64,000 nucleotides of DNA from Stentor roeselii (taxonomy: Eukaryota > Ciliophora > Heterotrichea > Heterotrichida > Stentoridae), in NCBI GenBank assembly GCA_006503475.1, contig RSEH01000014.1, positions 124,001-188,000 on the forward strand, in the 5' to 3' direction. The notes under the pieces were generated by a model. It was not told where the DNA came from, searched no databases, and saw only the letters and a program-made list of their open reading frames with translations. Of this stretch, positions 46,859 to 59,563 are shown one piece after another. The stretch's first letter is position 1. Each line of letters opens with the position of its first letter. The position numbers and the translations under genes were made by a program.

Positions 46859-48865
46859 ATGAACTTCATGCGAATGTTTACCCACCAAAAATACGCTTAT
46901 AACCAGAAACTCCGAAAACAGCTAAACTTATTCGGAAAAAAAATCAATTATGATTCAAAAGCTCAAGAACTAATCCTAAAGCGGCACGGGTCAAACAAAC
47001 CTCGACTGAGTATTTTAGGTCTCGGTCCCAACGACTTAAATCAATTTTCTAAAGAAGAACTTGTCGTGCTCATGTCCTTAGTCCCGACCAGAGCCCAAGT
47101 GAACTGCATTCCAAGAAGCAAATACGTGATTCCTCTCACATGTGACGCGAAAGTCGTTTTCGACATCGCGATTGATTTTTTATTGTTATTTTCATCGATT
47201 TCTAGTTTATTTTACCTGGCGTTTCAACCAGAAGTGCCAAAAAACCTAGAAATTTTAGATTCTTTGGTTTGGGGAGTGTTTTTGGTGGACTTTGTACTGA
47301 ATTTTTTCACTGCTAAAATCAATAAAAAAGGATACCCAGTCCACACATTCAGAGGAATTTACAAAATCTACTCAAAAACCTGGATGCTTCCTGACCTTTT
47401 AGCGATAATCCCTTTAAAATGGACAGGAAACCCGAATTCCGAGTGTTTTTTAAGACTTTCCAGAGTTTTCAAGTTTCATCGACTTTTCGACAGAATAAAT
47501 ATTTTTAAATTCGCGAATCAAGTCACGAACTTATTATTAAGATCAGAAACGACAAGTAAAAAAAAGTGCAAACTTTTGATAATTCACACTTGGGACTTAA
47601 TCGGGTATATCTGGCTTACTATTTTTTCTACTTATTGTTTAGCTTGTTTGTGGATATTTTACGTGGAAGTCGTTCACAGGAACATCGGAGAACCTGTGAA
47701 CTACGAAAAAACTTTTGACTTAAGTCCAGGGTATTCAACTGAAAAACTAGTAAAAACCTGGTACTTTGTATTTACAACTCTTATGACTGTTGGATATGGA
47801 GACTTCTACGCGACTAACAAATATGAAATGATTGTCGCTATCATTTTTGTTCTCTCAGGGACTACATGGTTCACTTTTGTGATGAGTAAAAGTCGAGTGG
47901 CTTTAAGTAGTCTTCAAGAGCTTTCTTCTAAACACTTTGATAATGTTGACTTAAACTACTGGGTCTATCAAATCGAAAACAACTTCAGTCGACTTCCAGT
48001 TTCTTTAAAAAAACAGATAAACCAGCACTTTTTTCATTCAAGAGGAAATGACCGACTGAGAAACTTGGCGACATTAGAGGTAGGAGCGAATTCAACAGTG
48101 ATCCGATGTGAGTTCTTTAAAGTCCTCTCAGATGACTTGAAAGAAAGAATTTATGAATTTTTGTTTAGTGACATTTTTTATAAATTTCGCTTTTTTTTCA
48201 AGTTTATGGGCTCGGCGAAGTATTTTCTTGCAGGATTTTTACAGCCAAGGTTTTTCGTGAAGAACTCAATCATCCAAGACATAAATGAATCTGTCTGTGA
48301 AGTAAATTTTGTGTATTCTGGAGTTTTTCAAATCTGTGCTAAAGCTGGTAAAAACATCATCGACCTTTACACTATCGACAGTTCTTTCCTCATTGGAGAA
48401 TTTTTTGTTTTACATCAAATTAACAGTTTCGCTATTTTTCAAACTGTTTGTGGAGTCCACGCTTATTCAATCCCAGCTCATATTTTATTAAGTGTCAAGA
48501 AAAATAATCCAGAAATAGTTGAAATTTATCTGAAGTCAATTGAAAGACGTTATAAGTTCATCAAGGAAAAAATCACTGCAGTCGCTGAAAAAAATTACCT
48601 GGAAACCAATGAATTTGACGGGTCTTCTGGAAAACTATTCCCAGCATATGAAGATTCCGCAAGTGATAGGAATAAATACGTTTTAACTGAGGAACAAGTG
48701 GAAGAAACAGAAGATATTTTAAAAAAATTCCAACAAATCGAAAAATCTGTTCATGATTTCAAAAAAACTCGTAAAGAAAACGCGAAAAAACTGAAAAAAA
48801 AACTTTCTTTATACTTATTCAGGAAACTCTCACAGGACAATCCTTGTTTAAGGAGGTCGCTTTAA
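46859..48865 (+). CDS. six-TM K+ channel with degenerate cyclic-nucleotide-binding domain, paralogue A (668 aa)
   Basis: CNG/HCN/EAG-type architecture. S1 about 100-121 (FDIAIDFLLLFSSISSLFYL), S2 131-150, S3 near 175, S4 with few charges (LRLSRVFKFHRLFDR), S5 (IWLTIFSTYCLACLWIFYVE), pore with K+ filter TVGYGD near 310 followed by FYATNKYEM, and S6 (IVAIIFVLSGTTWFTFVMS). A C-linker and a cNMP-binding-like domain follow, but the phosphate-binding cassette (FLIGEFFVLHQINSFAIFQT) lacks the conserved Arg, so cyclic nucleotide may not bind. Paralogous to the three minus-strand genes from 57578 on, but more diverged. The stop is 13 bp from the convergent EML-like gene. Confidence 0.92.
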   Translation: MNFMRMFTHQKYAYNQKLRKQLNLFGKKINYDSKAQELILKRHGSNKPRLSILGLGPNDLNQFSKEELVVLMSLVPTRAQVNCIPRSKYVIPLTCDAKVVFDIAIDFLLLFSSISSLFYLAFQPEVPKNLEILDSLVWGVFLVDFVLNFFTAKINKKGYPVHTFRGIYKIYSKTWMLPDLLAIIPLKWTGNPNSECFLRLSRVFKFHRLFDRINIFKFANQVTNLLLRSETTSKKKCKLLIIHTWDLIGYIWLTIFSTYCLACLWIFYVEVVHRNIGEPVNYEKTFDLSPGYSTEKLVKTWYFVFTTLMTVGYGDFYATNKYEMIVAIIFVLSGTTWFTFVMSKSRVALSSLQELSSKHFDNVDLNYWVYQIENNFSRLPVSLKKQINQHFFHSRGNDRLRNLATLEVGANSTVIRCEFFKVLSDDLKERIYEFLFSDIFYKFRFFFKFMGSAKYFLAGFLQPRFFVKNSIIQDINESVCEVNFVYSGVFQICAKAGKNIIDLYTIDSSFLIGEFFVLHQINSFAIFQTVCGVHAYSIPAHILLSVKKNNPEIVEIYLKSIERRYKFIKEKITAVAEKNYLETNEFDGSSGKLFPAYEDSASDRNKYVLTEEQVEETEDILKKFQQIEKSVHDFKKTRKENAKKLKKKLSLYLFRKLSQDNPCLRRSL

Positions 48866-50929: not shown

Positions 50930-52369
50930 TTAATTACTATAAAGGTCTTCTGAGGCCGGAATGTATTTAGTGCTTCTAGTCATTGATGACTTAACCTCTT
51001 CTAATTCTTCCATCGCTACAACTAAAGCATTTCTTTGAAGTTCGTCATCTCTTTTAAAGGTGTATCCAATGAACTGAGGGTCTTTTCTAGTCCTTTTCTT
51101 TACCTGAGGAGGGTAAAAAGGTTCATTCTCTTCAAACTGATCAAAATTACTCGTATCAATTTCACTAGCGAGATTAGGTATATAAGGCGAAGTCACATTC
51201 CTGATATTTTTCCAGTCAACTCCATGAAAAAACGGGTGAGCCTTGATTTCATGAGCACCTCCACTGCCCAGTCGAATTGGAGCCTCACAAACAAGTCTTC
51301 TAATCAAATCCGAAGCTTGAGGACTAACTTTCGCATCTCTAGGAATAACGAAATATTTCTGCCAACTTAAAATTTTATGACAGATATCAGCAGGTTTTTC
51401 CGCATAAAAAGGAGGATACCCTACAAGCATTTCATATAAAATAACTCCGACAGACCACCAGTCAACAGTTTCACTATAACCATTTCTACTGAAGACTTCA
51501 GGTGCTATATAGTCAGGAGTTCCAACAGTTGAATAAGCAAGTTTTCTATTCCTTCTGAATTCAGCCCGTTGTTCAATTTTTTGTCGATGTTTCGCATCTT
51601 CATCAAGTTTTTCAAGAACTTCTTGATTCGGTGAAATTTCTGCATTTTTTGAAAGTCCAAAGTCAGAAATTTTGATATGGCCACGATTGTCAATTAAGAT
51701 ATTATCTGGTTTTATATCACGATGAATGAAGTTCATCTTGTGAATAGACTCAATGGCTAAGATGCATTCAGCGATGTAGAAACGAGACTCGGCTTCTGTG
51801 AGAATATTTTTACGAATGAGAAGAGTCATCAAGTCCCCTCCCCCGAGGTACTCCATGACGAGGTACAAGTTTTTATCGTCTTGGAATGAAAACTTGAGCT
51901 CGACTATCCAAGGGTTCTCCACCGTTGCCAATACGTTGCGCTCGGCTAGTACATGTTGAACTTGATTTTTGTAAAGCATTTCAGTCTTGTTTAGCTTTTT
52001 CATCGCGAATATCTCTCCTGTAGGCTTATATCGAACCACGCGAACCTCTCCAAAAGCGCCTTTTCCAATGATTTTGATGGGTTCGAAGTCGAAAACAGTG
52101 ACTTTTTGTCTTCGTTTTCGGAGACTTTCTGACTCTTGTTTAAGGATTTTCTGTTTAATTAGGTCTTGTTCAGTGTTTGTAAGACTGAGTTCTTCCATTG
52201 TTTTTTTGAGTTCTTCCCAGACTTCAGTTTTTTCTTGTTCCTTTTGTTTGAGTTTCGAGTATTTCCGTTCGATGTACTCTTTGGCGACTTTCGCTTTATC
52301 TCTTGTGTTGGCACTGAAAGGTTCTTTCGGGTCTTTTTTCTTTTGACCAGTGGGTCTGGGACTAGCCAT
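50930..52369 (-). CDS. NDR: NDR/LATS-family AGC kinase (479 aa)
   Basis: N-terminal MOB-binding region (KVAKEYIERKYSKLKQKEQE; KQESESLRKRRQKVTVFDFE), kinase domain about 93-400 with GKGAFGEVRVVRYK, FAMKKL, HRDIKPDNILID, DFGLSK, the NDR-type basic insert (KHRQKIEQRAEFRRNRKLAY) and activation segment STVGTPDYIAPEVF. C-terminal hydrophobic motif FIGYTFKRDD has the expected Thr. NDR kinases are activated by MOB1 and control polarity and morphogenesis; MOB1 is an established regulator of Stentor regeneration and polarity, so this is a natural partner. All catalytic and regulatory residues are intact. Confidence 0.96.
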   Translation of the reverse strand: MASPRPTGQKKKDPKEPFSANTRDKAKVAKEYIERKYSKLKQKEQEKTEVWEELKKTMEELSLTNTEQDLIKQKILKQESESLRKRRQKVTVFDFEPIKIIGKGAFGEVRVVRYKPTGEIFAMKKLNKTEMLYKNQVQHVLAERNVLATVENPWIVELKFSFQDDKNLYLVMEYLGGGDLMTLLIRKNILTEAESRFYIAECILAIESIHKMNFIHRDIKPDNILIDNRGHIKISDFGLSKNAEISPNQEVLEKLDEDAKHRQKIEQRAEFRRNRKLAYSTVGTPDYIAPEVFSRNGYSETVDWWSVGVILYEMLVGYPPFYAEKPADICHKILSWQKYFVIPRDAKVSPQASDLIRRLVCEAPIRLGSGGAHEIKAHPFFHGVDWKNIRNVTSPYIPNLASEIDTSNFDQFEENEPFYPPQVKKRTRKDPQFIGYTFKRDDELQRNALVVAMEELEEVKSSMTRSTKYIPASEDLYSN

Positions 52370-52395: not shown

Positions 52396-53529
52396 TTAAT
52401 CATTCAGGTCTTCAGATTCTTTAATTTTCAGTTGTTTGAAGTGAGTTTTTTCTTTCAGTATATTAAGCATGATCGCATCAGTGATGGCATTAGTGGCAAT
52501 GATCAATCCTAAAGAAGAAGCAATTTGTAAAACAATGTTAAACAAAGAAGGCGTGATATAAATTCCATAAGTCGAAAACAAGATACGTACACCTTTAAAA
52601 TGATAAAGATCTCTATAAAGTTGCCCAGATCTTCTATAATACTCAGCATGTTGCATGCTGTACCCGCCGCTATCAGCTTTATCAAGTCGTTCAACTTGCA
52701 GAGACATGTCACATTTTTCATTAGGATTTCGAATACAATTCAAAACTAGTGTCGCTTTAAACAATGCTCCTTTATCAGCGATCTGTGAGAAGTTAGTCCC
52801 TGCCATTTGAATGATATCACTGACCTCCCAAGCATCAGAGTCTTCCCCGGGGTACCTTTTAAAGTCCTCGTCGCCGAGGTTGTCCTTGCTGAGTGAAGCA
52901 AGTCTTTGAAACTCGACTTTAAACCGAGCCCATACGATTTGATGAGCTGCGTTTTCCAAGTAGTAAATTTCACTTGAGTTACTTTCAGGAGGACACCATC
53001 TCCACGCTTCACAGCCGTAAGTCCCTGCAGCGCTTTTAGAACAGGTTTCAGTTTCAATCACGTTTGGCAAGTCGTTGGTGGCACAGTCAGCATCTGACTC
53101 GCAGTACAAGTAAGGGTCGGCGCAGACTCCTTGGTATTGAGCCTTGGTGACTACTACTTTACTTGGAATGAAAACGGCTGACGTTTCATGGCCCCAGGGG
53201 TTTTCCTCTGCCACGTCCCAAACGTATGGATTTGAACCGGTGGAATAAGCGGTTCCTAAAAGTTCTGTATAAGTAAAGCCTTCTACTTTCTCGATGTCTA
53301 GGTAACTCTTGTTTATTAGGAAAACAACGACGATTAGGTATAAAAGAATCACGGTTAAAGTACCGTAGTAGATGTAACCTAAACGACGGTCTAATATTCG
53401 CACGTTTTTAGAGGAGTAGTAATAAGTCACCCAGGAAAAGAACTCGAAGAATTCTTCTTTGAATGAGGTTTGTTCTTCTTCTGTATCGGAGGAATTTTCT
53501 AATAGTTTTTTTTCTTCTTCTTCTGACAT
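52396..53529 (-). CDS. P2X-family ion channel lacking the canonical ATP-binding residues (377 aa)
   Basis: Trimeric P2X-type channel plan: TM1 about 51-73 (GYIYYGTLTVILLYLIVVVF), large ectodomain, TM2 about 329-357. Family landmarks are strong: YVWDVAE at 102-108, GVC at 135-136, YCESDADC, CEAWRWCPPE at 173-182, NC...C at 265/273, RLD, and EYYRR...GVRI. Eight of ten usual ectodomain cysteines are present; one pair is absent. Against P2X4 the ATP contacts are all replaced: K67 by E89, K69 by L91, T186 by Ala, N293 by S291, R295 by Q293, K313 by H310. So the fold is P2X but ATP gating is doubtful. Its start is 11 bp from the divergent gene at 53541. Confidence 0.9.
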   Translation of the reverse strand: MSEEEEKKLLENSSDTEEEQTSFKEEFFEFFSWVTYYYSSKNVRILDRRLGYIYYGTLTVILLYLIVVVFLINKSYLDIEKVEGFTYTELLGTAYSTGSNPYVWDVAEENPWGHETSAVFIPSKVVVTKAQYQGVCADPYLYCESDADCATNDLPNVIETETCSKSAAGTYGCEAWRWCPPESNSSEIYYLENAAHQIVWARFKVEFQRLASLSKDNLGDEDFKRYPGEDSDAWEVSDIIQMAGTNFSQIADKGALFKATLVLNCIRNPNEKCDMSLQVERLDKADSGGYSMQHAEYYRRSGQLYRDLYHFKGVRILFSTYGIYITPSLFNIVLQIASSLGLIIATNAITDAIMLNILKEKTHFKQLKIKESEDLND

Positions 53530-53540
53530 TTGTTGTAATT
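53530..53540. promoter_or_regulatory. 11-bp divergent spacer between two start codons
   Basis: TTGTTGTAATT separates the P2X-like ATG (minus, 53529) from the ATG at 53541 (plus). Confidence 0.65.
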
Positions 53541-57577: not shown

Positions 57578-59563
57578 TCATTTAAATTCACCTTCAGTCC
57601 TCTTCAAAATATTCTCAACAAGTTTTTCCTTAACCTGCCTGATAAGTTTTCTTCTCATCACATCAGTATCCTTAATTTTAGTTTTAATATCCTTGACCGC
57701 AACTCGAACCTTACACTTCATTTCACAAGGACAAGAATTCAGATAAGACTTAAAAAATTCAGGTCTTGGAATTTTTTTAAACAGAGGAAAAAGTCTTTTT
57801 CTGTTAAGATTTTCAACAATCCTTTCTTCAGTAGTGACGACATCATCTTTATGTAGCTCCTGGACCAGTTCACCAAGCGACTCGTAGTTATCCTGTATTT
57901 TTTCCAGATATTTTAAAACTTCCAGTCCCTTTTGATTGACAAGTTCATTAAAAGCAAAAGCAGGAACCAAGTATCCCCTGATAAAATTAAGAGCTCTGAA
58001 CACAGCAGGAGATTCCACATCTTTAATCACATAAAAGTCTCCTAAAACCAGATGTTTATTCAGAACTCCAATAGTCTGAAACCCTTTATGTGTAAAAATC
58101 CCTACTTCCACCTGTCCATTCAAAATAAAATAAAGTTCATTCACTTTACTTTCAGAGTAAATCACGATTTCATGGCAAGCAAAAAAAAAAGGTTTCATGA
58201 AATGAAGCAGGCTGAACTTTTCCTCATCCAAGAAGTTAAAAAAGTGACAATACCTCCAAAACATGTCACTAAACAAATACTCTAAAATCTCTTCTTTTAT
58301 CTTAACAGGAAGTTGTTTAAAAAGTTCATCAGGGATATTTTCAAAGTCGACTCTCGTCTCATCAGAAGAGTTCTGCAAAGATTTTAGCCTGTCATATTTC
58401 CAGTAATTTGAAAAATGTGCAAAAATTTTCCCTTTAAGCTGATTTGGAACTGCATGAATTTTTTCTTCAATTGAAAACATCCACAGTTGAAGATTGATCA
58501 ATTTATTATTTCTTCCTGATAAGTCCTGCAGTTTATTGATGATTGTGATTGACTTGCCCATCATGAATGCGAACCAGGTGGGTCCAGCTAACAAAAGAAG
58601 AATCGCGAATCCCATTTCGTACTTATTCGTTGCATAAAAGTCTCCATACCCTACAGTGACAAGAGTAGTAAAAATGAAGTACCAGGTCTTCATGAAATTT
58701 GTGTACTCGTCTTCATGTTCCATTCCGAAGTTGCTGTAAAAAGAATTGGATTCTTGTTTTTTTCTTATTATAAAGTCCACATAGTAAAACCAGATGCAAG
58801 CTAAAAAAAAAGTCATGTAAAACATTATGATTATCTGCTTCAGGATCTCCCACAAATGAATCACTCTCATTCGGAAGTTCTTAAAATTACGAGTTTCTTT
58901 TCTATACACCCATCCTGCAAGAACTTCTGAAATTTTCAAGATTTTCACTAAATCGAAAAAATGTCTCATTCTGGAAATCCTCAGAAGTCTTAAAAAATAC
59001 TCCACATTGTAATGTCCCCAAAAGTGTAAAGGAATTAAAGATCCTAAGTCGAAAAAAAGTCGAGTTTTTGCATAGTTTCTTAAAATTACTTTAAGATTTC
59101 TCACTTTTCTATTCTTTTTATCAGTATACTCTGAAAAGAACTGAGAAATAAAGTCTATCAAAAACAAGCACCACACAACTAAGTCGAAATTATAAGTTAA
59201 GTTGGTTTCTTTAGATAACGCCAGGAAGTAAAGAGAAGAAGTGACTGAATAAATAACTAAAAACTTCATCAGAATGTCAAAATTTTGCTTATAGGGATTT
59301 GACTGAGATATCGTTAACTTCTCGTGTTTTTGAAGATATGCTTTTGTTCGATCAGTCCTTGAACGGATCAGAGAATCGTGAAGAAAAGCACGATTTGAAT
59401 CTGAGATCCTCCGAGAACTACAAGTTTTTGCGAAGGGAGGTGGGCTTAAGTCTTCTAGCTCTGAACCTTGCATTGAACTTCGAAGAGCTGATGTCCCGAG
59501 AATGTCGAGTTTTTGTTTCATTGTGTCAAAGTGATCTTGGTTGATTACTTGATAGACGTTCAT
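57578..59563 (-). CDS. six-TM K+ channel with cNMP-binding-like domain, paralogue B (661 aa)
   Basis: Same architecture as the gene at 46859: S1 (IYSVTSSLYFLALS), S2 (FDLVVWCLFLIDFISQFFSE), S4 (LRLLRISRMRHFFDL), S5 (IIIMFYMTFFLACIWFYYVD), filter TVGYGD near residue 302 with FYATNKYEM, S6 (GFAILLLLAGPTWFAFMMG), C-linker (LPVKIKEEILEYLFSDMFWR) and a cNMP-like domain. The cassette reads LVLGDFYVIKDVESPAVFRA, without the expected GE and R-T-A. Compared with paralogues C and D it is a more distant tandem member. Expected in cell or ciliary membrane, shaping excitability. Confidence 0.92.
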   Translation of the reverse strand: MNVYQVINQDHFDTMKQKLDILGTSALRSSMQGSELEDLSPPPFAKTCSSRRISDSNRAFLHDSLIRSRTDRTKAYLQKHEKLTISQSNPYKQNFDILMKFLVIYSVTSSLYFLALSKETNLTYNFDLVVWCLFLIDFISQFFSEYTDKKNRKVRNLKVILRNYAKTRLFFDLGSLIPLHFWGHYNVEYFLRLLRISRMRHFFDLVKILKISEVLAGWVYRKETRNFKNFRMRVIHLWEILKQIIIMFYMTFFLACIWFYYVDFIIRKKQESNSFYSNFGMEHEDEYTNFMKTWYFIFTTLVTVGYGDFYATNKYEMGFAILLLLAGPTWFAFMMGKSITIINKLQDLSGRNNKLINLQLWMFSIEEKIHAVPNQLKGKIFAHFSNYWKYDRLKSLQNSSDETRVDFENIPDELFKQLPVKIKEEILEYLFSDMFWRYCHFFNFLDEEKFSLLHFMKPFFFACHEIVIYSESKVNELYFILNGQVEVGIFTHKGFQTIGVLNKHLVLGDFYVIKDVESPAVFRALNFIRGYLVPAFAFNELVNQKGLEVLKYLEKIQDNYESLGELVQELHKDDVVTTEERIVENLNRKRLFPLFKKIPRPEFFKSYLNSCPCEMKCKVRVAVKDIKTKIKDTDVMRRKLIRQVKEKLVENILKRTEGEFK

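What the first reader, a model, noticed from the sequence alone, without database searches (positions are those of the whole stretch)
52396..53529. P2X-family channel with every canonical ATP-contact residue replaced
The protein aligns along its whole length with P2X receptors (WDVAE, QGVC, CESDADC, CEAWRWCPPE, GVRI...TM2), yet the six residues that bind ATP in P2X4 (K67, K69, T186, N293, R295, K313) read E, L, A, S, Q, H here. One disulphide pair is also absent. Either a ciliate P2X branch uses another ligand or gating mode, or it acts without ligand, for example in an intracellular compartment. The identity comes from sequence; the functional consequence is inference.
Basis: partly seen in the sequence, partly recalled or inferred. 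Interest (0 to 1): 0.78.

Follow-up and report, generated by a model that had tools for sequence, protein, structure and literature searches.

The report
Ciliate P2X channel lacking ATP-contact residues
A genome that looks like a ciliate's encodes a membrane channel of the family that animals use to sense ATP, but the amino acids that hold ATP are all different in it and almost all different in its two sister genes, so it may be opened by something else; similar cases are already hinted at in another protist.

Summary
Window 52396-53529 (-) is an intact 377-aa P2X-family gene (Pfam PF00864, E 2.3e-41). Against solved animal P2X chains the six direct ATP contacts read E89, L91, I198, S291, Q293, H310. 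One disulphide pair (zebrafish C220-C230) is missing. I add three things. (1) The same heterotrich-type genome holds two more P2X genes; both lack the two N-terminal lysines and Lys at the last position, though one keeps Arg at R298 in 7 of 9 alignments. No mix of the three rebuilds the canonical site. (2) The excess over general divergence is modest: 41 of 96 animal-invariant residues kept, 0 of 6 at the site (P=0.03). (3) The idea is not new: 13 Halocafeteria P2X genes were reported with ATP residues unconserved or partly conserved, and four Dictyostelium P2X with few contacts are still ATP-gated. The two ATP-gated protist receptors whose lysines I could check keep two of them; this one keeps none. 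Best reading: a P2X-fold cation channel no longer gated by ATP through the classical clamp. Trigger unknown; structure prediction failed.

The parts
52396..53529 (-). P2X-family channel gene, 377 aa, no intron
   Evidence: intact ORF; Pfam PF00864 142.5 bits, cut-off 27; PDB P2X matches
53311..53373 (-). TM1, about residues 53-73 (extent judged by eye from the alignment)
   Evidence: alignment with animal P2X TM1
53263..53265 (-). E89 at zebrafish P2X4 K70 (human P2X4 K67)
   Evidence: gap-free against zebrafish P2X4 from Y57 to G73
53257..53259 (-). L91 at zebrafish P2X4 K72 (human K69)
52993..53124 (-). head-domain cysteine block C136-C179, six of six Cys kept
   Evidence: that these six form the head-domain disulphides is recalled knowledge
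52936..52938 (-). I198 at zebrafish T189 (human T186); placement uncertain
   Evidence: 9 of 9 MAFFT settings, but opposite a gap in the HMM alignment and in two phmmer alignments
52657..52659 (-). S291 at zebrafish N296 (human N293)
52651..52653 (-). Q293 at zebrafish R298 (human R295)
52600..52602 (-). H310 at zebrafish K316 (human K313)
   Evidence: anchored by R312 and the G-[IV]-R block
52462..52548 (-). TM2, about residues 328-356, with the family's conserved Asp (D351, zebrafish D357) (extent judged by eye)

Best explanation
It is a P2X-fold cation channel subunit (family membership shown; trimeric assembly and cation conduction inferred from the family) of a heterotrich-type ciliate. 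The classical phosphate clamp for ATP has been lost, so ATP no longer opens it in the way known from animals (inferred). The head-domain cysteines and the TM2 aspartate are kept (shown), so a conducting channel is likely (inferred). The stimulus that opens it is probably another ligand or condition acting on the changed ectodomain; acidic pH, divalent ions or another anion are guesses with no evidence here. The loss is shared by the three P2X genes found in this genome at K70 and K72, so it probably began before they split, and mixing these subunits cannot repair it (inferred).
For: All six contacts are replaced in the window; the paralogs read Y,S,L,T,D,N (L002) and N,E,K,Y,R,R (L001, with T for the first R in 2 of 9 settings). 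Five of six positions are lost in all three paralogs, against 38 of 96 animal-invariant positions, P=0.034. Single changes at K70, K72, N296, R298 or K316 in animal receptors cut ATP potency from a few-fold to over 1000-fold or abolish function, and even K316 to Arg costs 25-fold in P2X1 (PMC3874471, passages). ATP-gated Ostreococcus P2X keeps the K70 and K316 equivalents (PMC3853471, section) and Dictyostelium P2XA the K72 and K316 equivalents (PMC3874471, passages); the window keeps none. The stretch 204-236 (dorsal fin, border approximate), which is pulled on when ATP binds (PMC3874471, passage), keeps 0 of 5 invariant residues in each of the three. The TM2 Asp is in all three.
Against: The site loss barely exceeds general divergence: P 0.031 for the window, 0.044 for L002 and 0.20 for L001. 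The six positions differ among the paralogs, so no conserved replacement site is visible. Dictyostelium P2X, poor in contacts, are ATP-gated in four of five cases, and residues that bind the gamma phosphate are said to be absent from most of their sequences; I did not see the residues of P2XB, D and E, so the 'two lysines are needed' comparison rests on two receptors. A basic residue may remain: zebrafish K193, which touches the alpha phosphate indirectly, aligns with R202 in MAFFT, though opposite a gap in HMM. TM2 is not specially conserved: 2 of 10 invariant residues in the window. No structure, expression or current was tested; the single-sequence AlphaFold model is useless (mean pLDDT 38.8).
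Confidence: 0.52

Rival explanations
1. It is still an ATP receptor of low affinity, holding ATP through other side chains, main chain or nearby basic residues (R202, R306, K312, and a protonated H310), as Dictyostelium P2X do with few canonical contacts.
For: Dictyostelium receptors A, B, D and E are ATP-gated with only a few of the contacts (PMC3774368, passages and section). R312 is kept in all three paralogs. K193 aligns with R202 in the window (MAFFT). L001 has Arg at K316 and, in 7 of 9 settings, at R298.
Against: Dictyostelium P2XA has the K72 and K316 lysines and loses ATP potency when they are changed; Ostreococcus keeps K70 and K316. Here K70 is Glu and K72 is Leu, and neither is Lys or Arg in any of the three paralogs.
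Confidence: 0.3
2. It is a leak channel, a channel controlled from inside the cell, or a silent partner subunit with no ectodomain ligand; for instance controlled by phosphorylation of the N-terminal YxSxK site or by membrane tension.
For: The N-terminal YYSSK (residues 37-41) matches the family's YxTxK/R with Ser for Thr. Control by PKC was proposed for ATP-site-poor Halocafeteria P2X (PMC5447177, passages). Dictyostelium P2XC gives no ATP current. Site residues vary between paralogs, as relaxed constraint would give.
Against: Each of three divergent paralogs matches the P2X profile almost end to end and keeps 8 of 10 ectodomain cysteines, which suggests that the ectodomain still does something.
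Confidence: 0.14
3. Artefact: pseudogene, wrong frame or misalignment.
For: The T189 column is uncertain. No transcript was seen.
Against: Intact ORF with a full-length domain; five of six positions lie in blocks gap-free against zebrafish P2X4 and agree in 9 of 9 MAFFT settings; two paralogs, one intact as it stands (L002) and one intact if one 15-nt intron is assumed (L001).
Confidence: 0.04

Closest known systems
Halocafeteria seosinensis P2X-related proteins (PMC5447177)
   Same: Protist P2X family members with TM and ectodomain layout kept and ATP-binding residues not or partly conserved; the authors inferred ATP insensitivity (passages read).
   Different: A halophilic protist with 13 genes; the residues are in a supplementary figure that I did not see. 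Here three genes in a heterotrich-type ciliate genome.
Dictyostelium discoideum P2XA-E (PMC3774368, PMC3853471)
   Same: Several paralogs, low similarity to vertebrate P2X, few ATP contacts.
   Different: Four of five are ATP-gated; P2XA has no cysteine at any equivalent position but has the K72 and K316 equivalents. The window keeps 8 of 10 cysteines but no contact.
Ostreococcus tauri OtP2X (PMC3853471)
   Same: 387 aa, about 28% identical to human P2X, lacks the same C217/C227 (human P2X1 numbering) disulphide pair.
   Different: Keeps K70 and K316 equivalents and is ATP-gated at about 250 uM, but its TM2 Asp is Asn; here the TM2 Asp is kept and the lysines are gone.
Vertebrate P2X1-P2X4 (solved structures)
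   Same: Alignment over nearly the whole chain; head cysteines, TM2 Asp, R312 and G328 kept.
   Different: The whole ATP clamp and the C220-C230 disulphide are missing here; 41 of 96 invariant residues kept.

Membership tests
P2X family (by descent) | Full-length match to the P2X_receptor profile over the curated cut-off | tested here: met
   142.5 bits against a cut-off of 27; positions 3-360 of 361
P2X family (by descent) | Two membrane helices flanking a large cysteine-rich ectodomain | tested here: met
   By alignment with solved chains only; no separate topology prediction was run
P2X family (by descent) | Ten ectodomain cysteines | tested here: inconclusive
   8 of 10 kept; not a strict criterion, since Ostreococcus lacks this pair and Dictyostelium P2XA all ten
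P2X family (by descent) | TM2 aspartate | tested here: met
   D351 in the window, Asp in both paralogs
P2X family (by descent) | N-terminal YxTxK/R and C-terminal YxxxK | tested here: inconclusive
   YYSSK and FKQLK: conservative changes in both
P2X family (by descent) | Homotrimer or heterotrimer | not testable with these tools
   only monomers can be predicted, and the single-sequence prediction failed
ATP-gated P2X receptor (by function) | Canonical ATP contacts K70, K72, T189, N296, R298, K316 | tested here: not met
   0 of 6 kept
ATP-gated P2X receptor (by function) | Current evoked by ATP | not testable with these tools
   needs electrophysiology

The most novel reading that the evidence does not exclude
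In this ciliate lineage the whole P2X family has left purinergic signalling: three paralogs kept the channel body and each evolved its own non-ATP trigger, making P2X a general chemo-gated channel scaffold rather than an ATP receptor by nature.
Probability: 0.28. Interest if true: 0.75.

Novelty: new variant of a known kind. Interest (0 to 1): 0.45.

Why it matters
P2X receptors are described as channels whose only natural ligand is ATP (for example PMC6356682, passage). A genome in which every P2X gene found lacks the phosphate clamp offers a natural test of whether the P2X body can be opened by something else, and of which residues are really needed. It would also help to read the many protist P2X-like genes already seen in transcriptomes (150 of 359 in PMC5447177, passage).

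Tried and rejected
Structure: the window protein alone gave mean pLDDT 38.8 and pTM 0.23, so no fold search and no pocket superposition were done. A trimer could not be modelled.

Relatives elsewhere: three scans of viral contigs and two of genome contigs gave no confirmed P2X relative. These collections are viral and prokaryotic, so this says nothing about other ciliates. Metagenome scans were capped at none.

A fourth P2X-like hit (L010, E 0.05) was rejected by eye: 86 residues inside an unrelated long frame; it was not scanned against Pfam.

A search for an ecto-nucleotidase family (PF01150) gave nothing, but its controls gave nothing either, so it is uninformative.

GTA..TAG and GTAA..AG words of 15 nt were counted in the window as a sign of tiny introns: 62 at length 15 against 32-53 at the other lengths from 12 to 25; no shuffle control was run, so it is kept only as a hint.

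Papers: searches; lists are capped (for example 25 of 84, 20 of 138, 20 of 55) and cover open-licence papers only. No listed title concerned P2X in heterotrichs, and the 20 papers listed hold the word P2X 0 times. Two Dictyostelium papers were not held. The Halocafeteria supplement could not be read.

Full report
WHAT IS THERE. The reverse strand of 52396-53529 holds an intact 377-residue reading frame. It matches Pfam P2X_receptor over nearly the whole profile, E 2.3e-41, and solved P2X chains in PDB, best E 1.7e-27. A profile of this protein and its two paralogs reaches E 2.6e-52 against P2X2. The gene has no intron and sits in a compact stretch: its stop is 26 bp from the start of a protein-kinase gene (50930-52369), and 11 bp separate its start from the ATG of a divergent acidic frame.

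THE GENOME. The window is part of a 44.4-Mb assembly of 522 contigs. Contig ends carry CCCTAACA repeats: 547 matches to three units in tandem (220 forward, 327 reverse), 0 in the reversed control, among them the end of this contig (the places listed are only the first 100 or so). That unit, and introns of 15-16 bp, are described for Blepharisma, a heterotrich (PMC9942806, passages). One presumed 15-nt intron was seen here, in paralog L001; it was not checked against transcripts. TGA seems to serve as a rare stop: 3 of 33 frames of at least 200 aa end on it, and reading through would add only 2, 4 and 7 residues, unlike Blepharisma, which reads UGA as Trp. A heterotrich ciliate is therefore likely; the species was not identified.

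THE SITE. I aligned the three ciliate proteins with five animal sequences (P2X1, P2X2, P2X3, human and zebrafish P2X4; five of the 34 distinct PDB sequences matched), copied as fragments from the PDB hits. At the zebrafish positions K70, K72, T189, N296, R298 and K316 the window reads E89, L91, I198, S291, Q293 and H310, the same in 9 of 9 MAFFT settings. L002 reads Y, S, L, T, D, N in 9 of 9. L001 reads N, E, K, Y, R, R in 7 of 9 and has T at R298 in 2 of 9. An HMM alignment and two of the phmmer alignments put T189 and K193 opposite a gap in the window, so these two columns are uncertain. Eight of ten ectodomain cysteines are kept in each paralog; the pair C220-C230 is absent in all three.

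HOW MUCH IS CHANCE. Ninety-six columns are invariant in the five animal sequences. The window keeps 41, L002 38 and L001 40; at the six site columns they keep 0, 0 and 1 (hypergeometric P 0.031, 0.044 and 0.20). Thirty-eight of 96 columns are lost in all three, and 5 of 6 site columns (P 0.034). P2X5, P2X6, P2X7 and invertebrates were left out, and the tests treat columns as independent. So the site is not protected, as it should be if ATP were the ligand, but it is only mildly worse than the rest. By region the head keeps 12 of 18 invariant residues in the window, the dorsal-fin stretch 0 of 5, TM2 2 of 10 (the region borders are recalled and approximate).

CAN A MIXED CHANNEL REBUILD THE SITE? 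The ATP pocket lies between subunits (PMC3874471, passages). K70 and K72 are absent from all three genes found by the Pfam profile and three protein queries, so no mixture of these three supplies them. A fourth gene broken by introns or missing from the assembly cannot be excluded.

WHAT IS KNOWN. Mutation of these residues in animal receptors lowers ATP potency, often strongly, or abolishes function (PMC3874471, passages). Dictyostelium P2X keep only a few of the contacts, and four of five are ATP-gated (PMC3774368, passages and section). P2XA loses ATP potency when lysines equivalent to K72 and K316 are changed, and Ostreococcus P2X keeps those equivalent to K70 and K316 (PMC3853471, section). 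The window protein goes beyond these two. But the residues of P2XB, P2XD and P2XE were not seen, and the paper says that gamma-phosphate residues are absent from most Dictyostelium sequences, so an ATP-gated receptor without these lysines is not excluded. In Halocafeteria, 13 P2X-related genes were reported with ATP residues not or partly conserved and inferred to be ATP-insensitive; the same paper lists Mesodinium pulex (a ciliate, label recalled) among protists with more than ten P2X-related proteins (PMC5447177, passages; its supplement was not read). The general idea is thus in print; the heterotrich-type case was not found in the searches listed under Tried and rejected.

MECHANISM. Shown: family membership, loss of contacts, kept head cysteines and TM2 aspartate. 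Inferred: trimer, cation conduction, loss of ATP gating by the classical route, another trigger. I give 0.52 to loss of classical ATP gating with another trigger, 0.30 to low-affinity ATP gating by other contacts, 0.14 to a leak, inside-controlled or silent subunit, and 0.04 to artefact. The structural test could not be made: the single-sequence model had mean pLDDT 38.8.

Noticed in passing
L001:1462-2601 and L002:1447-2589: Two further P2X genes of the same genome, 33% identical to each other and 26-29% to the window protein; L001 has one presumed 15-nt intron at 2253.
   Followed up: yes
window 53530-53540: Only 11 bp separate the P2X start codon from the ATG of a divergent acidic 164-aa frame without Pfam match; whether that frame is a gene is open.
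   Followed up: no
window 46859-48865 and 57578-59563: Two other channel-like genes nearby: one with Ion_trans_2, one with Ion_trans (just over its cut-off) and a cyclic-nucleotide-binding match just under its cut-off.
   Followed up: no
window 50930-52369: Protein kinase (Pkinase plus Pkinase_C; the label AGC-like is recalled) directly downstream on the same strand, 26 bp away.
   Followed up: no
window 52978-52980 (residue N184): An N-glycosylation sequon just after the CE..WC block is shared by all three paralogs (NSS, NST, NTT); none of the five animal sequences has Asn in that column.
   Followed up: no
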